DNA of 64,000 nt, taken from positions 1 to 64,000 of the forward strand of contig JAIETR010000034.1 of assembly GCA_019745075.1 (NCBI GenBank), given 5' to 3'. Below the pieces are notes generated by a model. It was not told the origin of the DNA, did no database searches, and saw nothing but the letters and a program-made list of their open reading frames with translations. The stretch is from Qipengyuania sp. GTDB lineage: Bacteria; Pseudomonadota; Alphaproteobacteria; Sphingomonadales; Sphingomonadaceae. Below, one piece after another: positions 52,415-61,396 of the stretch (position 1 is the first letter of the stretch; each line of letters begins with the position of its first letter). A program made the position numbers and the translations under genes.

Positions 52415-52548
52415 CGCGGCGGAACGGGAGACGGAGGGATAGGCCCGCGGCCATGTCCGGCGCCGAAGCGCCTCCGATCCCGAACCAGGAGTCCGTCCAC
52501 CTCTCCGGCTGCCCCATCTCCATCCGGCTCTGACGAGCCGGTCGGGTA

Positions 52549-52562
52549 TGGCGGAGACGGAG
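52549..52562. repeat. att direct repeat, left copy (distal to tRNA-Ser)
   Basis: tggcggagacggag, identical to the tRNA-Ser 3' end at 61306-61319. Confidence 0.75.
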
Positions 52563-52669
52563 TCTGCCTAACCACTGCCCGGACACGTCCGTATCTGTCC
52601 ACGAAGTCCCTATAAAACCTCACTTTTCTCTGTGATCGCCGTGCAAGCCGTCCGCACGTGTTCGATTGC

Positions 52670-52713
52670 GTTCCCATAAAAACGCGCTATTATCGGGGAA
52701 CGGTTATGGGAAC
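52670..52713. repeat. inverted GTTCCCATAA...TTATGGGAAC pair upstream of int
   Basis: GTTCCCATAA (52670-52679) and TTATGGGAAC (52704-52713); third copy at 61253-61262. Confidence 0.65.
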
Positions 52714-52722
52714 GGAGCCGAC

Positions 52723-53967
52723 ATGCCAAGGAAGCTGAGCAATGCATTGACCCCGCTGACGGTGAAGAACGCCAGGCCGGGACGCCACGCGGACGGGGCG
52801 GGGCTGCATTTGCTGGTGAAGTCGAGCGGCGCGCGCTCATGGGTTTATCGCTTCATGGTGAATGGCAAGTCGCGGGACATTGGCCTTGGCGCGGCTGGGC
52901 AAGGCGCGCTGTCCCTTGCCGACGCGCGCGACGAAGCGGCGGCGCTACGCCTGAAGGTCAAGGCGGGCATCGATCCGCTGGAGCAACGGGACCGGGAGGC
53001 CGCTCAGGCGCTGGCATCGGCTCAGGCTGCGAAGGTTGCGGGCAAGACCTTCCGGGAGGTGGCGACGGCTTACATCGCCGCGAACGAGGATAGCTGGCGC
53101 AACGCCAAACACCGCCAGCAATGGGGCAACACGCTCGCCGCCTATGTCTATCCCGTCATCGGCGACTTGCCAATTGCCGAGGTCGATACCCCGCACGTGC
53201 TTTCGATCCTGGAGCCGATCTGGAAGGGCAAGCCCGAAACCGCCAGCCGCGTTCGCGGAAGGATCGAAACCGTGCTCGATAGCGCCAAGGCGCGCGGCTA
53301 TCGGCAGGGGGAGAACCCGGCGCGCTGGCGCGGGCACTTGGCGCAAATCCTGCCAGCTCGCACCCGCCTGTCGCGCGGCCATCACAGGGCGCTCGCCTAT
53401 GAGGATGTTCCAGCGTTCGTTGGCGCACTCCGCGCGCGCGAGGCCGTGGCCGCGCTAGCGCTGGAGTTTGCGATCCTTACCGCTGCCCGCTCTGGCGAAG
53501 TGATCGGCGCGCGCTGGAGCGAGGTCGATTTGGCCAAGGCCACCTGGACCGTGCCCGCCGAGCGCATGAAGGCGGCAAAGGAACATCGGGTGCCGCTGTC
53601 CCCGCGCGCGGTGGCGATCCTTGAAAGCCTGAAACCGCTGGGCAGTGATTGGCTGTTTCCCGGCGCGGCTGGCGGCAAGCTGTCCGGCATGGCGATGGCC
53701 ATGCTCATGCGCCGCATGAAGGTTGACGCCACCGTGCACGGCTTCCGTTCCGGCTTCCGCGATTGGGCAGCGGAATGCACCGGCTATGCCCATGAGGTGG
53801 CGGAAATGGCGCTGGCGCACGCAATCGAAAACAAGGTGGAGCGGGCCTACCGGCGCGGCGACCTGTTCGACAAGCGGCGGCGGCTCATGGACGATTGGGC
53901 AGCCTATTGCGCCAGCGACGGCGCGGCTGGGGCGACGGTAACGCCAATCCGTGGAGCGGCGGCATGA
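52723..53967 (+). CDS. int: tyrosine-type site-specific integrase (DUF4102/P4 family)
   Basis: LTPLTVKNARPGRHADGAGLHLLVKSSGARSWVYRF, LEFAILTAARSGEVIGARWSEVDL, VHGFRSGFRDWAAECTGYAHEVAEMALAH, KVERAYRRGDLFDKRRRLMDDW. Confidence 0.95.
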   Translation: MPRKLSNALTPLTVKNARPGRHADGAGLHLLVKSSGARSWVYRFMVNGKSRDIGLGAAGQGALSLADARDEAAALRLKVKAGIDPLEQRDREAAQALASAQAAKVAGKTFREVATAYIAANEDSWRNAKHRQQWGNTLAAYVYPVIGDLPIAEVDTPHVLSILEPIWKGKPETASRVRGRIETVLDSAKARGYRQGENPARWRGHLAQILPARTRLSRGHHRALAYEDVPAFVGALRAREAVAALALEFAILTAARSGEVIGARWSEVDLAKATWTVPAERMKAAKEHRVPLSPRAVAILESLKPLGSDWLFPGAAGGKLSGMAMAMLMRRMKVDATVHGFRSGFRDWAAECTGYAHEVAEMALAHAIENKVERAYRRGDLFDKRRRLMDDWAAYCASDGAAGATVTPIRGAAA

Positions 53968-54305
53968 GCTACTCGGGAGCGTGGGAGCGGCGCGCTCAGG
54001 AAGCCGCCAAGCCGCATATCGCCAAGGTGGCGAGAGCACGGCGCTCGCTCGCCCGCCTAGACCCGGCGGCGCTGGAGGCGGTGGCGGAAGCCGCAATCGG
54101 CTTGCTGGACGAAGCGAGCGACCCGGACGCGGATCATTGCCTTGCTGGAGATGACGGCTGCGGCGCGTTCTTTGGCGGCGAACATCGCGGCTGGCATTGG
54201 GGTAGCCAATGGGAGAGCGAGGCGGACATCGGCCACGCTCCCGAATATGCGACCGATCAGCGCGAGATAATGGGCCGGTGGGGAGTGGCTTTCCGTGTCG
54301 ATTGA
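53964..54305 (+). CDS. hypothetical element protein
   Basis: MSYSGAWERRAQEAAKPHIAKVARARRSLARLDPAALEAVAEAAIGLLDE...; 4-nt overlap with int. Confidence 0.7.
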   Translation: MSYSGAWERRAQEAAKPHIAKVARARRSLARLDPAALEAVAEAAIGLLDEASDPDADHCLAGDDGCGAFFGGEHRGWHWGSQWESEADIGHAPEYATDQREIMGRWGVAFRVD

Positions 54306-54612
54306 ACCCGCCAGCGAGTCGGCTGGCATCCTGCCATTCGCGCTCAGCGACCGTTGGATCGTCACTGTCGAAAGCCAACGGCGCATCGTGAAGGTGCGCC
54401 ATCGCACCCGCTGGTATGCTGTCGCGCGGCGCAAGGGCCATGAGGATCGGCGGCATTGGTGCGCCAGCCGCGCGGATGCCCTCGGCATCGCCGAAATGAT
54501 GCGGGAAGGCTTCCGAGAGGCGGCCGAACTGGAGCGTTTCACCGCCGCGTATCACCGCGCAAGCGACTGGCAGCGCGCGGTTCACCAGTGGCTTGATTCA
54601 GTCGAACAATGA
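54295..54612 (+). CDS. hypothetical element protein
   Basis: GTG/ATG-start ORF SIEPASESAGILPFALSDRWIVTVESQRRIVKVRHRTRWYAVARRKGHEDRRHW; overlaps the previous ORF by 11 nt. Confidence 0.6.
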   Translation: MSIEPASESAGILPFALSDRWIVTVESQRRIVKVRHRTRWYAVARRKGHEDRRHWCASRADALGIAEMMREGFREAAELERFTAAYHRASDWQRAVHQWLDSVEQ

Positions 54613-54627
54613 TTCGCCGCCGTCGCA

Positions 54628-55500
54628 TTGGAAACTGGCGAGCGAGGGCTTAAACCGGGAGCGGGGATAGGCTGGCCAGCCGACAAGCGCGCATCCCACG
54701 CGCTTCCCCGCTTCATCCTGGGAGCCGCTAGGGAGGCGGATTTGGCAGAGCGCAAGAACACCGGGATAGCTGTTCCCGACGCCAAGCGGCTGAACGATTG
54801 CTATCACGAACTGAGCGAAGCGATTGCCGCGCCCCCAGCCGACAAGCCGCTAATGCCCCCTGAGGCGCAATTCGTGACGCTATCCCATGCGCTCACCTGG
54901 ATCGCTTTCGGCGTTTCGATGGACAGCGATCAGCTCCATGAAGTGCTGACATTGGACCGCTATGGCGAACGCGATCCGCAAGAGGCGGTCAAGGCGGCGG
55001 TGGCCCAACTTGTCGATCTTGGGCGCGGCGGGCGCATTGCGATGGAGGGCAAATATCGGGAAAGCCATCGGGACGAAACGCGCACGTTGCTGACAGCCCC
55101 AATCGAGCCGACCAATTTCGCTAACTATCGCCAATTCAACTACTTGGAGGACTCGCTTTGTCTTGGGACGGGCTTATTTTGGGAAAGTGATGGCTCGGAT
55201 TCCATCATCAACGAAAAGGGGTATTCCGCGTTTATTGAAATTGGCGTGAGCCGTGCGGACCTGTTGCGCGAGTTTCCGCCCAAGGGCGGGGGGATTGTCC
55301 CTGCCAATCGCCAGCTCGATCATGCGGAAATAACCGGCAAGGCAGCCGCGATGCTCAGAGAGCAACCGGGTTTGTCCAAAGGCTCTGCGGCGGCGTCGAT
55401 TAGGGCGGAACTCCCGCCCAATCCAAAGACAGGAAAGCCACGCGATCAGCGCGGCCTAGAGAGGATCATTGGGCATCTCTGGGAGGGGAAAGTCATATAA
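54628..55500 (+). CDS. hypothetical element protein (start uncertain)
   Basis: 290-aa ORF, unfamiliar sequence with AKAAAMLREQPGLSKGSAAASIRAELPPNPKTGKPRDQRGLERIIGHLW-like C-terminus. Confidence 0.65.
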   Translation: METGERGLKPGAGIGWPADKRASHALPRFILGAAREADLAERKNTGIAVPDAKRLNDCYHELSEAIAAPPADKPLMPPEAQFVTLSHALTWIAFGVSMDSDQLHEVLTLDRYGERDPQEAVKAAVAQLVDLGRGGRIAMEGKYRESHRDETRTLLTAPIEPTNFANYRQFNYLEDSLCLGTGLFWESDGSDSIINEKGYSAFIEIGVSRADLLREFPPKGGGIVPANRQLDHAEITGKAAAMLREQPGLSKGSAAASIRAELPPNPKTGKPRDQRGLERIIGHLWEGKVI

Positions 55501-55607
55501 TCCCCCAAGGCGTCCGCATTCCCCCGATTCAACGCCGGACGGAGCCGGTCTAATTGGTTGCCCCCCGAACGCAGGTATCCCGCCAGCGTTACGTTGGAGC
55601 AACCCGA

Positions 55608-55796
55608 ATGCAAACCGTAACCAACGATCCTCCCAAGATCGCCTACAGCATAAAGGAAGCCTGCCGGGCGTCCAGCCTGGGGCGGACCACGCTCTACGCG
55701 CACATCGCCGCAAATCGCCTGAGGGCCGTCCGCATCGGCGGGCGCACCGTCATTCCGGCGGACAGCCTTCACGCTTTGATCGCCGGGGAGGCATGA
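55608..55796 (+). CDS. AlpA/excisionase-like HTH protein
   Basis: IAYSIKEACRASSLGRTTLYAHIAANRLRAVRIGGRTVIPADSLHALI. Confidence 0.85.
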   Translation: MQTVTNDPPKIAYSIKEACRASSLGRTTLYAHIAANRLRAVRIGGRTVIPADSLHALIAGEA

Positions 55797-55977
55797 GCCA
55801 TGCCCCAGATATGCGAAACCCGCGCGGATGAGGCGCGGGCGTCGCGGAATAGCTGTGGCGGCTGGTTCCGCGATCCCCTTACCCCTCCCGCGTCACCCCC
55901 GCAAGCGATCCCGCCGCTGATTGCGCTCCACCTTGGCGAGCGGTTTCTAGCGCGGTTGACAGAGGGAGGCGCTGGCC

Positions 55978-56289
55978 ATGGCTGATCGTTATCCCGACAA
56001 TCCCGGCGCGAAGGGGCCGGACGGCACGAGCCAGGATGCAGCCGAGGCCATCGCCCCGAATGTCTCGCACCTTCGCCGCCTCGCCATGCGCTCTCTGGCC
56101 AGGCTTGGGCAGGCAACCCCGCTGGAGGCCATCGCCGTCGCTGGCGTGACGCGGGAATCGCTCCAGCCGCGCTTTTCGGAGCTGCGCGCAATGGGCCTGA
56201 TCGAAGCGACCGGCGCGCGGCGGCGCAATCCAAGCGGCAAGAGCGCGTCCGTGCTCAGGCTTACCGACAAGGGGAGGGCCGCGCTGTGA
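55978..56289 (+). CDS. small winged-helix-like element protein
   Basis: MRSLARLGQATPLEAIAVAGVTRESLQPRFSELRAMGLIEATGARRRNPSGKSASVLRLTDKGRAAL. Confidence 0.7.
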   Translation: MADRYPDNPGAKGPDGTSQDAAEAIAPNVSHLRRLAMRSLARLGQATPLEAIAVAGVTRESLQPRFSELRAMGLIEATGARRRNPSGKSASVLRLTDKGRAAL

Positions 56290-57227
56290 TCGTCGATATT
56301 CACGCCATCGCGCGGCGCTACGGCGGCAAGGTATGCAAGGGCAACGCGCTGATCCCGACGCCGGGCCATTCCAGCCGGGACCGGGGCACGGCGATCAAGG
56401 CCAGCGCGCTCGCTCCCGATGGCTGCCTTGTCGCCTGCTATAACGGCACGAATGCCGACGCACTGGCGGTGAAGGACATGCTGCGCGCGGACGGCTTCCT
56501 TCCGCACGATCCGCACACATCGCACACATCGCACGCGCGCGAGCTGACAGCAGCGGAGCGGCTTTCGATCCGGCAAGCCGAGCTGGCGCGCAAGCGCGAG
56601 CGGCTGGCAGCCGAGGAAGCGGCGGCACGGTGCGCGGCGGACCTGTGGCGCAACGCCGGCCGCGCCGATCCCGCGCATTCCTACCTTGTGGTCAAAGCGT
56701 TGGAGCCGTTTGGCATTCGCCAGGCCGGGCGTGATTTGCTGGTGCCCATGATCGATACCGGCTTTCGCCTATGGAACGTCCAGCGCATTCGGCCCGATGG
56801 CTTCAAGCTGTTCGTCAGGGATGCCCGCACGGCTGGCCTGTTCTGGCCCCATGGCGTGCACCTGATCGATGGCAGGCCATCGGCTGGCCCGCTGGTGATC
56901 GGGGAAGGCTTCGCAACCATGGCCGCGATCCATTCGGCAACCGGCTATGGCGTTGCCGCTGCCATGTCCGCGCGCAACCTGGAGCCGGTGGCGCGGGCGA
57001 TGCGAAAGCTGTTCCCGGCGCGCGAGCTGATCCTTGCGGCGGACGACGATTGCCACCTGCCCGACAATCTGGGCCTTGATGCCGCCAGGAAAGCCGCTCA
57101 GGCCGTTGGCGGGCTTGTCGCCATGCCGAGGCCGGAAACGCGCGTGGCGGACTGCGGAGCCGATTTTGCGGACATTCCGCGCGGCGACGTGGCGGGGCGG
57201 GTTGCCGCTGCCCGGTTGGAGGTATGA
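56286..57227 (+). CDS. toprim domain protein (primase-like)
   Basis: YGGKVCKGNALIPTPGHSSRDRG, GPLVIGEGFATMAAIHSATGYGVAAAMSARNLEPVARAMRKLFPARELILAADDD. Confidence 0.88.
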   Translation: MIVDIHAIARRYGGKVCKGNALIPTPGHSSRDRGTAIKASALAPDGCLVACYNGTNADALAVKDMLRADGFLPHDPHTSHTSHARELTAAERLSIRQAELARKRERLAAEEAAARCAADLWRNAGRADPAHSYLVVKALEPFGIRQAGRDLLVPMIDTGFRLWNVQRIRPDGFKLFVRDARTAGLFWPHGVHLIDGRPSAGPLVIGEGFATMAAIHSATGYGVAAAMSARNLEPVARAMRKLFPARELILAADDDCHLPDNLGLDAARKAAQAVGGLVAMPRPETRVADCGADFADIPRGDVAGRVAAARLEV

Positions 57228-58516
57228 CAATGGCCGCAACCGCGACCCAGCCGCTCGATTTTGCCACGCTCCAGCCGGACGAAGCGGCGGCGCGCATCCA
57301 TCGGCATTCCGCTTTACGCGCCACCCCCTACCGCTGGCCCGATCCGGCATCGCTGCCACGGCGGCAATGGCTCATGGGCCATTGGCTTTTGCACGGGGAG
57401 GTGACGGCGATCATCGGGCCGGGCGGCACGGGCAAGAGCACGATCGGCAACGCGATTGCGCTCAGCCTCGCCTCTGGCCAGCCGCTCTTGGGCAAGCCGC
57501 TGCATCGCGGGCCGCAAGCCGTGTGGATATTCAACCTGGAGGACGGCACCGACGAACTGGAGCGGCAATTGTCCGCTGCTTGCGCCTTCCATGGCATCGG
57601 CCCCGGCGATTGCGGGGACCGGCTCCACCTCGATAGCGGGCTTGTCCAGCCGCTGTGCACCGCAAGCGAGGACCGCGACGGCTTCACGTTGGCTGAGGAA
57701 GTCTTTGCCCAGCTCGCCGCCACGATCCGCGAACGGCGTATTGCAACCGTGATCGTCGATCCCTTCGTGTCCAGCCATGCGGTGCGCGAAAGCTCGAATG
57801 AGGCAATCGACGCCATCGCCAAGCGGTGGAAGCGGCTGGCTCAGGAAACCGGCTGCGCGGTGGTGCTGGTGCACCACACCCCCAAGCTGAGGGGCCGGGA
57901 GGCGACGGCTGAGGATGGACGCGGCGCGGTGGCGCTGCGCGACGCTGCCCGCGTCGTGCTCCCGCTCAATGCCATGGGCGACAAAGAAGCCGAGGAACTT
58001 GGCATTGCCGATCCGGCGCTACGGCGTTCTTTGGTGCGGATCGACACCGGCAAAGCCAATCGCGCACCTCCCGACGCCGCCACGTGGATCAAGCTGGAAA
58101 GCCAAAGCCTCGACAATGGCGACGGACTGGAGCCTGCCGATTTTGTCGGCGTGGCCACGCTTTGGGAAAAGCCGGACGTGTTTCACGGGCTGACGAGCTG
58201 GCACCTCTACATGGTCCAGCAAGGGCTGGCGGCTGGCGACTGGCGCGAAAGCGTCCAGGCCAGGGATTGGGTTGGCCACCTTGTCGCCAGCGTGGCGGGC
58301 CTGTCCGCCGAAACCGATAAGGGGCGGATCAAAGCGATCCTGCGGACGTGGCGAAGGACTGGCGCGCTGGCGGTGGAACACCGCACGATCAATGGCCGCG
58401 ACGTGCCTTTCGTGATCGTCGGCAAGCCGGTTGACCCCAGCGAGATAGGCACCCGTCCGCACCTTCAAACGTGTGGTGCGGAAGGTGTGGAACGTGCGGG
58501 CGCGGACCCGCGATGA
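57224..58516 (+). CDS. AAA ATPase, RepA/DnaB-like helicase
   Basis: GEVTAIIGPGGTGKSTIGNAIALSLASGQPLLG Walker A; TVIVDPFVSSHAV Walker B; CAVVLVHHTPKLRGREATAEDGRGAVALRDAARVVLPL. Confidence 0.9.
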   Translation: MTMAATATQPLDFATLQPDEAAARIHRHSALRATPYRWPDPASLPRRQWLMGHWLLHGEVTAIIGPGGTGKSTIGNAIALSLASGQPLLGKPLHRGPQAVWIFNLEDGTDELERQLSAACAFHGIGPGDCGDRLHLDSGLVQPLCTASEDRDGFTLAEEVFAQLAATIRERRIATVIVDPFVSSHAVRESSNEAIDAIAKRWKRLAQETGCAVVLVHHTPKLRGREATAEDGRGAVALRDAARVVLPLNAMGDKEAEELGIADPALRRSLVRIDTGKANRAPPDAATWIKLESQSLDNGDGLEPADFVGVATLWEKPDVFHGLTSWHLYMVQQGLAAGDWRESVQARDWVGHLVASVAGLSAETDKGRIKAILRTWRRTGALAVEHRTINGRDVPFVIVGKPVDPSEIGTRPHLQTCGAEGVERAGADPR

Positions 58517-58612
58517 TCCCCAACCGCACCACCCGCACCCCTCTTTAGGGGGTGTGGTGGTGGTGTGGTGCGGGTGCAGGTTAGTGAGGATCAAAAACAA
58601 GGTGCGGGTGAA

Positions 58613-59314
58613 ATGAGCGAGACAAGCAAGGCGAAGCGCAAGGGATCGGCGGGCAAGGCTAAGGCTGGCGAACCTGCCAAGGCAAGTTTGAGCGTGGAGA
58701 CCCAGCCGGGCAAATCGGAGCAACGCAATCTGGCGGAGATCGCATTGGAGCCTGCCGCCCATGCAATGGCGACGGCGAGGCTTTTCAACGCCGGAAGTTT
58801 CGGCAGCAAGATCGAGGTGACCGAAACCTATGGCGTGCTGCGCGACGAAATTAAGGCGGTGACCGATGGCGATCTGTCGCACCAGCGCGCTCTTTTGGCG
58901 GGGCAGGCCATCGCCCTCAATACGATCTTTACCGAGCTGGCGCGCCGGGCAGGCGCCAACATGGGAGAGTATCTTGGCGCGATGGAAAGCTACATGCGGC
59001 TGGCGCTTAAGGCTCAGGCACAAAGCCGCGCGACTATCGAGGCGTTGGAGCGGCTGGCCAACGGGCACGTGCAGACTGTGAAACACGTCCACGTCAATGA
59101 AGGCGGGCAGGCCGTCATTGCCGAGACCGTCCACACCGGGGGGCAAGCAAATGGAAAAATCGCCGATCAATCCCATGGAGCCACAACCGGCCCGGTTGGC
59201 ATCGGCCCCGCGTTGCTTGGCGCGGACCCGTGCGGGAGCGGAGTGCCAATCGCCAGCGGTGAAGGGGCGGAAGCGGTGCAGAATGCACGGCGGGACGAAT
59301 CCCGGCGCGCCTAA
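58613..59314 (+). CDS. hypothetical element protein
   Basis: MSETSKAKRKGSAGKAKAGEPAKASLSVE...QSRATIEALERLANGHVQTVKHVHVNEGGQAVIAETVHTGGQ; 3' end overlaps the HGG ORF in another frame. Confidence 0.7.
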   Translation: MSETSKAKRKGSAGKAKAGEPAKASLSVETQPGKSEQRNLAEIALEPAAHAMATARLFNAGSFGSKIEVTETYGVLRDEIKAVTDGDLSHQRALLAGQAIALNTIFTELARRAGANMGEYLGAMESYMRLALKAQAQSRATIEALERLANGHVQTVKHVHVNEGGQAVIAETVHTGGQANGKIADQSHGATTGPVGIGPALLGADPCGSGVPIASGEGAEAVQNARRDESRRA

Positions 59315-59414
59315 GGGCAATCGCAACGCGTGGAAACATGGCGGGCGCTCAGCCGAGGCGCTGGCAGCGGCTCGATACTTGAAAGCGATTGCGCGGCTGG
59401 TGCGAGAAAGCTGA
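59151..59414 (+). CDS. HGG-motif small protein (Cys/His-rich)
   Basis: CLARTRAGAECQSPAVKGRKRCRMHGGTNPGAPKGNRNAWKHGGRSAEALA. Confidence 0.75.
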   Translation: MEKSPINPMEPQPARLASAPRCLARTRAGAECQSPAVKGRKRCRMHGGTNPGAPKGNRNAWKHGGRSAEALAAARYLKAIARLVRES

Positions 59415-59479
59415 CTAAGGGAGGCTGTTTGTCAGTTGCGAGGTGCTGCGATAAGAACTTGTGCCGAGGGGGATTGCGG

Positions 59480-59911
59480 ATGTGGGGTGAACTTTTCCGC
59501 GACGGCCAGCCGGTCGAGATCGCGCAAATTCTGTTGCTGCTAGTCGGAATGGGATTCGTCGTCTTGACGCCATTCGTTTGGGTGTGCGGCAGAATCCTCG
59601 CATTGAAGGAACAACCGGATAGGCGGGCGCTCTGGACCGTCGCAGCTTCCTATGCTGGTGCCGCTTTGATTTTCATTTTTGGCAGCGGCGGATTCATCTC
59701 GCCTTGGCTCGCGCCCTTCATTCCCTTGCCAGGCGCGCTAGCGATCTATTTTTGGCTGCGGCACAGCTATCGCAAAGCATGGATTGACGACGAAATGGTG
59801 CCGGACTGCATGAGGCTGGAAAACAGTGACTGGCGCATCGGCATTGGGGTTGTGGTGGGAGCGATCATAGCCGCTGCCATTAAGGTCGCGGTTATTCGCG
59901 GCCCTCTGTGA
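59480..59911 (+). CDS. small membrane protein, hypothetical
   Basis: MWGELFRDGQPVEIAQILLLLVGMGFVVLTPFVWVCGRILALKEQ...; about 4 TM segments. Confidence 0.6.
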   Translation: MWGELFRDGQPVEIAQILLLLVGMGFVVLTPFVWVCGRILALKEQPDRRALWTVAASYAGAALIFIFGSGGFISPWLAPFIPLPGALAIYFWLRHSYRKAWIDDEMVPDCMRLENSDWRIGIGVVVGAIIAAAIKVAVIRGPL

Positions 59912-60177
59912 ACGGTGTGACCGAGACCCGAAACTGATTTGCGCCAAGCGCGCGGAAACCCGCCCTTTCAATCGATCCCGAATTGCCAGTCAGATTTGAT
60001 TGAGAAGCTGCCACCTCTCGAAAGGCGCAGCTTTCCGCCATTTCCAGCCGCGATCCGTCGCGTTCGGTGTGTGCCTGTTCCTAGCTTCCAAATGTCGCCT
60101 GGCTTGCCGTTCTGATTTAGATCGCGGCATATGGGCCAAATATCCGGTGGGATGCGACGAAGCGAAACAAGCCGTTA

Positions 60178-60206
60178 TTGATTTGTTGGGAAACGGTGGA
60201 TATATA
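60178..60206 (+). promoter_or_regulatory. sigma70-like promoter upstream of hairpin RNA/abi
   Basis: TTGATT (60178-60183), 17 nt, TATATA (60201-60206). Confidence 0.55.
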
Positions 60207-60211
60207 GCGCG

Positions 60212-60268
60212 CAACAAAGCCCGCCACGCCTCTCAACGATGCGCACCATGGCGGGCTACTTTGTTTTT
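60212..60268 (+). ncRNA. predicted short hairpin ncRNA with U-tract upstream of the abi gene
   Basis: ACAAAG-CCCGCCA (60214-60226) pairs TGGCGGG-(cta)-CTTTGT (60249-60264), then TTTT; starts about 8 nt after the -10-like box. Confidence 0.55.
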
Positions 60269-60291
60269 GGGCTTGGCTCGCGCATAAGTGA

Positions 60292-61209
60292 ATGATGCGC
60301 CATTTCAATAAGCCATCCAAGTCAATTCCCGACCAAATCGCCCTGCTCCAAGAGCGCGGGATGGTGATCGAGAATGCGCAGCAAGCAACCTGGGCGCTCA
60401 GCCATATCAGCTACTATCGGCTGCGGGCTTACTGGCTCTACTACGAAGCCGAACCCGAATCCGGCAATCATATATTCAAGGAAGGCACGACGCTCGAAGC
60501 GGTGCTTTCCCTCTATGAATTTGATCGCCGTCTCCGGCTGCTGCTTATGGACGCGTTGGAGCGAATAGAGGTCGCGGCGCGTGGTGCATGGGCGCACCAG
60601 ATGGCAATGGTCTATGGACCACACGGTTACCTCAATGCGGCGCTATATCCACGCACCGATCGCTTTCAGGCCAACCTTACGCAGCTACAGTCCGAATTTG
60701 ATCGCTCGCATGACGTGTTCGTCGATCATTACAAGCGCACTTACAACAATCCTCCATTGCCGCCTGTCTGGATGGCAGCCGAATTTATGTCTTTCGGTCT
60801 GCTGTCCAAATTCTTCTCGGCTTTGGGAGGACGTGCTGACCGCAAGGCAATCGCGCGCAAAGCTGGCTTTGATGACCGAGTTTTCCAGGGCTTTATGCAT
60901 CACCTTGCGACGGTGCGAAACATTTGCGCGCACCATAGCCGCCTCTGGAACCGGCGCTTTACCGTCACCTTCCCAATCGCACAAAATCCGGCTGGCATTG
61001 CAGATACGATTGTCCCTGAGGCCGACCGCAAGCTCTACAACACGCTCTCAATGCTGTTGCACTCGATGGGAACCATATCTCCTGAATCCGACTGGCCACG
61101 CCGCCTGACGTGTTTGATCGCGGAAAATCCGACGGGCGATTTTGCCGCAATGGGCTTCCCTGATGATTGGCGGCAGCGTCCTCTATGGGCGCACCTCTGT
61201 TCTGATTAA
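60292..61209 (+). CDS. Abi family protein (Abi_2, AbiD/AbiF-like HEPN-type abortive infection protein)
   Basis: HFNKPSKSIPDQIALLQERGMVI, ALSHISYYRLRAYWLYYE, LYEFDRRLRLLLMDALERIEVAARGAWAHQMA, WMAAEFMSFGLLSKFFSAL, VRNICAHHSRLWNRRF (R-x4-H-like). Confidence 0.92.
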   Translation: MMRHFNKPSKSIPDQIALLQERGMVIENAQQATWALSHISYYRLRAYWLYYEAEPESGNHIFKEGTTLEAVLSLYEFDRRLRLLLMDALERIEVAARGAWAHQMAMVYGPHGYLNAALYPRTDRFQANLTQLQSEFDRSHDVFVDHYKRTYNNPPLPPVWMAAEFMSFGLLSKFFSALGGRADRKAIARKAGFDDRVFQGFMHHLATVRNICAHHSRLWNRRFTVTFPIAQNPAGIADTIVPEADRKLYNTLSMLLHSMGTISPESDWPRRLTCLIAENPTGDFAAMGFPDDWRQRPLWAHLCSD

Positions 61210-61305
61210 GCCACCGGCGTTCGCATCAAGCGCCAACGCTATCGGGGAGCGATTATGGGAACCAGATCACCAAAGGCAGAAAATGCCAATGTTTTCAGGC
61301 AAAGG

Positions 61306-61396
61306 TGGCGGAGACGGAGGGATTCGAACCCTCGGTACCCGGATAGGGTACGGTTCCTTAGCAGGGAACTGGTTTCAGCCACTCACCCACGTCTCC
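61306..61396 (-). tRNA. tRNA-Ser(GCT)
   Basis: Reverse complement ggagacgtgggtgagtggctgaaaccagttccctgctaaggaac...gggttcgaatccctccgtctccgcca; 91 nt incl. CCA; anticodon loop CTGCTAA. Confidence 0.94.

What the first reader, a model, noticed from the sequence alone, without database searches (positions are those of the whole stretch)
60178..61209. Abi_2 (AbiD/AbiF-like) defence gene with an embedded promoter and a terminator-like hairpin RNA immediately upstream
Seen: about 380 bp of non-coding, less GC-rich DNA precedes the Abi gene. It contains TTGATT-N17-TATATA, and about 8 nt later ACAAAGCCCGCCA...TGGCGGGCTACTTTGTTTTT, a 13-bp-arm hairpin (3-nt bulge) with a U-tract, ending about 25 nt before the abi ORF. 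This looks like a self-contained transcription unit of about 55 nt rather than an mRNA leader. Established: Abi_2/AbiF proteins are HEPN-related toxins, and an abiF RNA motif (structured RNA next to abi genes) has been described; from memory, recent work links AbiF proteins with ncRNA antitoxins to Cas13 origins. Inference: the hairpin is a cognate ncRNA antitoxin/guide or an attenuator of the toxin in a sphingomonad satellite element.
Basis: partly seen in the sequence, partly recalled or inferred. Interest (0 to 1): 0.82.

Follow-up and report, generated by a model that had tools for sequence, protein, structure and literature searches.

The report
AbiF toxin with its RNA antitoxin
A small mobile DNA element in a sphingomonad-type bacterium carries a known kind of anti-phage toxin gene (AbiF, a relative of Cas13's cutting domain) preceded by a separate 57-letter RNA that almost certainly keeps the toxin off; the pair is a new example of a recently described system, and solitary copies of the RNA in related genomes raise a testable counter-toxin idea.

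Summary
The hairpin is Rfam's abiF RNA (RF03085; 50.0 bits against a cut-off of 37) and the gene downstream is an AbiF-type Abi_2 protein. Its AlphaFold model matches PbAbiF bound to its ncRNA (PDB 8vz6) at TM 0.87. Six close relatives give a sharp footprint: the -35 and -10 blocks and 57 of 58 RNA bases are invariant, while the 5-nt discriminator is not. Across Pseudomonadota, one cyanobacterium and a Prevotellaceae bacterium all ten base pairs covary. A lineage-appropriate promoter precedes the RNA in nearly all homologues, including the Bacteroidota TAnnTTTG box.

The best reading is an RNA antitoxin/toxin pair (AbiF-AbiFr, type III-like). The RNA's own stem is also the terminator that limits abi read-through. 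This mechanism is already published for PbAbiF and C. difficile RCd22/AbiF.

Additional findings: (i) Rfam's model reaches its cut-off at only 4 of 17 AbiF loci in this bacterial family that have the hairpin; (ii) four of 301 family genomes carry the RNA unit with no adjacent abi gene; (iii) the pair is cargo at the tRNA-Ser end of an 8.8-kb integrase/AlpA/primase element (52549-61319). New member of a known kind.

The parts
60178..60183 (+). -35 element TTGATT, inside the invariant block GTTATTGATTTGTTGG (60174-60189)
   Evidence: invariant in six relatives; 17-nt spacer; sequence homology with L001 (G043) starts essentially here
60201..60206 (+). -10 element TATATA
   Evidence: 60200-60205 invariant in six relatives; the following 5 nt vary freely
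60212..60269 (+). abiF RNA transcription unit (AbiFr-type ncRNA), about 57 nt, predicted start at C60212-A60214, end in the T-run
   Evidence: 57 of 58 positions invariant in six relatives; own covariance model 67.8 bits; ends are inferred, not mapped
60220..60256 (+). Rfam abiF motif RF03085
   Evidence: 50.0 bits, gathering 37
60260..60268 (+). T-run of the intrinsic terminator formed by the abiF stem itself
   Evidence: a T-rich tract follows the stem in nearly all homologues
60292..61209 (+). abiF toxin gene (Abi_2); conserved start 60295; HEPN motif RNICAH = R209-H214 counted from 60292
   Evidence: PF07751 E 6.8e-55, PADLOC AbiD 2.1e-69, PDB 8vz6 E 8.5e-52, AlphaFold TM 0.87/0.89 to 8vz6, R/N/H/H invariant in 35 homologues
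52549..61319 (.). putative integrated element carrying the pair as its terminal cargo (8.8 kb)
   Evidence: 14-bp direct repeat TGGCGGAGACGGAG at both ends, integrase 52666-53967, tRNA-Ser 61306-61396(-); a related element lies at the same tRNA in G043; no empty site shown

Best explanation
This is an AbiF-AbiFr toxin-antitoxin pair. A promoter at 60178-60206 makes a short RNA (about 60212-60269) whose closing stem doubles as an intrinsic terminator. Most transcripts stop there, giving a large excess of free antitoxin RNA; occasional read-through makes the abiF mRNA, since there is no room for a second promoter in the ~25 nt before the start codon. The AbiF dimer binds one RNA per monomer, which blocks its HEPN ribonuclease site. 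When the RNA supply fails (transcription shut-off during phage infection, or loss of the element), free AbiF cleaves RNA and arrests the cell. This protects the population and/or stabilises the element. Shown here: RNA family, covariation, promoter/terminator conservation, toxin family and fold, element context. Inferred from published AbiF systems: RNA binding, inhibition, RNase toxicity, release on infection.
For: Rfam abiF over its cut-off. All 10 pairs show two-sided changes in 26 diverse sequences, 95% of cells paired, 0 of 500 shuffles as high, slid controls 34-54%. Anchored by loop sequence alone, 40 of 44 loci have a full 6-bp partner for their own 5' arm, against 8.6% for foreign arms. 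Footprint: RNA 57/58, promoter 25/33, discriminator 0/5, upstream 7/50 invariant. Sigma-70 score 8.16 against 6.28 shuffled in 43 loci; TAnnTTTG at 9-11 nt before the stem in all 7 Bacteroidota loci. The hairpin plus T-run lies 10-67 nt before the abi start in 48 of 52 loci at a score that 7% of shuffles reach. The protein matches PbAbiF solved with its ncRNA, and the conserved HEPN R and H are the pair whose mutation kills AbiFCd toxicity (PMC12373285). RNA without abi occurs (G132, G163, G035, G248), the asymmetry expected of a harmless antitoxin.
Against: No expression, binding or toxicity data for this locus. A single motif copy, whereas canonical type III antitoxins and RCd22 have repeats (PMC12373285), although PbAbiF binds one RNA per monomer (PMC12737573). 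A generic promoter scan at 9 of 12 matches found none. Two of 19 full-length family Abi_2 genes (L021, L022) lack a recognisable hairpin, so not every Abi_2 gene uses this RNA. Most loci entered the alignment through a finder that required a paired stem (the loop-anchored test addresses this).
Confidence: 0.87

Rival explanations
1. Cis attenuator only: the hairpin is a leader terminator that limits abi transcription (perhaps relieved in infection), with no direct action on the protein.
For: Terminator sits between the only recognisable promoter and abi in nearly every homologue. RCd22 does reduce abiF transcription (PMC12373285). AbiD1 has a regulated structured leader (PMC12373285, citing Bidnenko).
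Against: A bare terminator needs no conserved loop. Here loop and inner stem (GCCTC...GCGCACC) are among the most conserved parts, and the same RNA binds the protein in PbAbiF and AbiFCd. Solitary RNA units persist without the gene.
Confidence: 0.08
2. Guide-like or crRNA-like RNA that directs AbiF to target transcripts, as in Cas13.
For: AbiF HEPN domains are related to Cas13 (PMC12165695, PMC12737573); a weak CRISPR-DR28 similarity of the stem, 21.4 bits against a cut-off of 35.
Against: No spacer, no array. The transcript ends right after the stem. The motif is invariant across six species; the variable part in distant homologues is a self-paired inner hairpin.
Confidence: 0.02
3. A decayed or non-functional remnant on a mobile element.
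For: Mobile context; many islands decay.
Against: Intact 305-aa ORF with invariant catalytic residues; near-perfect RNA conservation among relatives with 82-93% protein identity.
Confidence: 0.03

Closest known systems
PbAbiF-AbiFr (Prevotellaceae; PDB 8vz6; Zilberzwige-Tal et al., as described in PMC12737573 and PMC12373285)
   Same: Same protein fold (TM 0.87, about 33% identity), single motif copy; the Prevotellaceae relative L051 has the same RNA before its gene
   Different: Alphaproteobacterial, sigma-70-type promoter instead of TAnnTTTG, extended terminator stem with a 3-nt bulge, different bulge sequence (CACCAU)
RCd22-AbiFCd of C. difficile prophage phi027 (PMC12373285)
   Same: abiF motif RNA upstream of an Abi_2 toxin, shared promoter, terminator read-through, R-x4-H residues
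   Different: RCd22 has two motifs and a separate terminator hairpin (132 nt); here one motif whose stem is itself the terminator (~57 nt)
ToxIN/TenpIN/CptIN type III toxin-antitoxin systems
   Same: RNA antitoxin upstream, terminator limits toxin expression
   Different: Unrelated toxin fold and RNA (pseudoknot repeats); no tandem repeats here
Cas13 (type VI CRISPR)
   Same: Related HEPN ribonuclease domain by published work
   Different: No array, no spacer, single HEPN protein that dimerises

Membership tests
abiF RNA (Rfam RF03085) | Covariance model score above the gathering cut-off | tested here: met
   50.0 against 37 bits
abiF RNA (Rfam RF03085) | Outer and inner stems supported by compensatory changes | tested here: met
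   10 of 10 pairs with two-sided change; loop-anchored 40 of 44 against 8.6%
abiF RNA (Rfam RF03085) | Located next to an abiF/Abi_2 gene | tested here: met
   60220-60256 followed by PF07751 at 60292; 14 of 18 RNA-positive genomes also have a full Abi_2 gene, hypergeometric P 8e-17 (model partly trained on these)
AbiF (Abi_2, AbiD/F group) | Abi_2 domain and fold of PbAbiF | tested here: met
   PF07751 E 6.8e-55; TM 0.87/0.89 to 8vz6
AbiF (Abi_2, AbiD/F group) | HEPN R-x4-H motif | tested here: met
   RNICAH, R, N and H invariant in 35 homologues
AbiF (Abi_2, AbiD/F group) | Ribonuclease toxicity or phage resistance | not testable with these tools
   needs expression experiments
Type III toxin-antitoxin (functional class) | RNA neutralises the toxin by direct binding | not testable with these tools
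   shown for AbiFCd (PMC12373285) and reported for PbAbiF (PMC12737573), not for this locus
Type III toxin-antitoxin (ToxIN/TenpIN/CptIN families) | Tandem antitoxin repeats upstream of the toxin | tested here: not met
   one motif only; not filed under these families
CRISPR-Cas13 (type VI) | Repeat-spacer array / guide segment | tested here: not met
   single stem-loop, no spacer; DR28 similarity below cut-off

The most novel reading that the evidence does not exclude
Solitary abiF RNAs (promoter, motif and terminator kept, no abi gene) in related genomes act as stand-alone antitoxins that disarm AbiF carried by competing elements or phages: RNA mimicry like the phage pseudo-ToxI described for PhiTE (PMC3475682), here spread on cellular mobile elements. 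G035, G248, G132 and G163 carry such units; a lytic cyanophage was also reported with an abiF RNA (PMC9964418).
Probability: 0.22. Interest if true: 0.65.

Novelty: new member of a known kind. Interest (0 to 1): 0.42.

Why it matters
It adds a compact, single-motif alphaproteobacterial AbiF-RNA pair with sharply footprinted ends. Here the antitoxin stem is itself the terminator, a good minimal construct for testing how RNA release triggers a Cas13-ancestor ribonuclease. It shows that Rfam's abiF model misses most relatives of this RNA in its own bacterial family, and that the promoter-RNA-terminator layout is kept across phyla with lineage-specific promoters. The orphan RNAs make the question of abiF-based counter-defence directly testable.

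Tried and rejected
Guide/crRNA reading: rejected, no spacer or array. A start-codon-sequestering second hairpin (GCGCAU 60281-60286 with AUGCGC 60295-60300, kept with G-U in relatives): sequence pairing is conserved in six relatives, but folding is not exceptional (window z -0.94; mean z -1.31 over 46 loci, strong only in some), so not claimed. My first loop-anchored pairing test used a poor 3' anchor and was uninformative; replaced. A second MAFFT run (A2) split the 3' arms and was not used; in A1 the orphan L005 row is off by one column, which counts against the result. The viral-contig scan gave no relative. An empty attachment site was sought in the genus: the tRNA-Ser and right flank are present without abi in G1041, but the left flank did not match there, so no clean empty site.

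Full report
What is there. Rfam identifies 60220-60256 as the abiF RNA, RF03085, at 50.0 bits (cut-off 37). The hairpin is therefore a member of an already described RNA family.

The gene. PF07751 Abi_2, E 6.8e-55; PADLOC AbiD; best and only strong PDB match 8vz6, PbAbiF bound to its ncRNA (E 8.5e-52). A 27-sequence AlphaFold model (pLDDT 94.8) superposes on 8vz6 with TM 0.87/0.89. The HEPN R-x4-H (RNICAH) is invariant in 35 aligned homologues except for its middle residues. In C. difficile the matching R202 and H207 are needed for toxicity (PMC12373285).

The RNA is real and independently transcribed by comparative evidence. In six relatives (protein identity 82-93%) the blocks GTTATTGATTTGTTGG, ATATAT and the whole RNA 60212-60269 (57 of 58) are invariant, while the five discriminator bases vary completely and the upstream 50 nt keep 7. 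In 26 diverse sequences every one of ten pairs changes on both sides somewhere, 95% of cells pair, no shuffle reaches the values, and sliding the partner drops pairing to 34-54%. Because most loci were found by a pairing-based search, I repeated the test anchoring on the loop alone: 40 of 44 own arms find a full partner, 8.6% of foreign arms do. Promoter-like sites precede the RNA at a fixed distance: sigma-70 score 8.16 against 6.28 in shuffles over 43 loci, and the Bacteroidota box TAnnTTTG in 7 of 7 Bacteroidota loci.

How wide the RNA is. In 301 genomes of the same family, 19 have a full-length Abi_2 gene. Seventeen of these have the hairpin plus T-run before the gene; RF03085 reaches its cut-off in only four, because the inner hairpin varies in length. 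A model built here (R1) finds 18 genomes at E below 1e-4, 14 of them with a full Abi_2 gene (hypergeometric P 8e-17; the model was partly trained on these loci).

Orphan RNAs. G132, G163, G035 and G248 carry the RNA unit with no abi gene beside it. G132 and G163 have no Abi_2 at all; G035 and G248 have broken Abi_2 fragments elsewhere. In G035 the start codon and first codons survive and the rest of the gene is gone; in G248 the match ends just after the terminator. Beyond the family, G938 has one before a HigA-like gene and a type I restriction gene, and G830 one between hsdM- and hsdS-like genes (gene names read from translations). Toxin loss with antitoxin retention is the expected order for a toxin-antitoxin pair. 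Whether the solitary RNAs do anything is untested.

The element. The pair is the last cargo before tRNA-Ser(GCT) 61306-61396(-). A 14-bp repeat of the tRNA end lies at 52549, 104 bp before a tyrosine integrase, followed by an int-alpA RNA, AlpA-like HTH, primase and AAA_25 genes. G043 has a related element (integrase 82%, AlpA, primase, abi 90%) at the same tRNA; G177 has the abi pair at the same tRNA with no detectable match to the other element genes in the stretch fetched. The AbiF pair is thus a conserved terminal cargo of tRNA-Ser elements. No empty site was demonstrated.

Mechanism. By direct homology to two characterised systems, AbiFCd/RCd22 (toxic protein, RNA neutralises by binding, read-through of a terminator; PMC12373285) and PbAbiF/AbiFr (HEPN RNase dimer, one RNA per monomer; PMC12737573), I read this as an RNA antitoxin/HEPN toxin pair, probability about 0.87. 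Here the antitoxin's own closing stem is the terminator, so termination and antitoxin production are the same event. The attenuator idea is a compatible second role; the guide idea is rejected.

Novelty. The kind is known (abiF RNA described in Rfam; mechanism published in 2025). New here are the instance, the exact footprint, the cross-phylum promoter conservation, the under-reach of the Rfam model and the orphan RNAs. Overall: new member of a known kind.

Noticed in passing
L106 (G035), L111 (G248), L005/L088 (G132), L006/L089 (G163); also L071 (G938), L072 (G830): Orphan abiF RNA units without an adjacent AbiF gene, several beside restriction, helicase or integrase genes.
   Followed up: partly
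window 54660-54725: int-alpA RNA (RF02996, 43.0 bits), shortly downstream of the integrase and overlapping the start of ORF 54628-55500.
   Followed up: no
window 52427-52440 and 52549-52562: Two different 14-bp matches to the tRNA-Ser 3' end (61310-61323 and 61306-61319) lie 122 bp apart left of the integrase, possibly traces of an earlier insertion.
   Followed up: no
window 60278-60300: Conserved TCGCGCATA whose GCGCAU can pair with AUGCGC at the start codon, kept with G-U changes in relatives; folding not exceptional.
   Followed up: partly
L015, L016, L018, L044: Very stable second hairpin (z -4.7 to -8.7) between the abiF RNA terminator and the abi start codon in a subgroup of AbiF loci.
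   Followed up: no
L058, L059, L060, L064: Plasmid AbiF genes sit in restriction/helicase clusters, with hsdS-like, GIY-YIG and DEAD/DEAH genes or HsdR as neighbours.
   Followed up: no
window 59097-59414: Small ORF with a weak match to phage terminase small subunits (PHROG E 3.8e-5), a hint of a phage-satellite character of the element.
   Followed up: no
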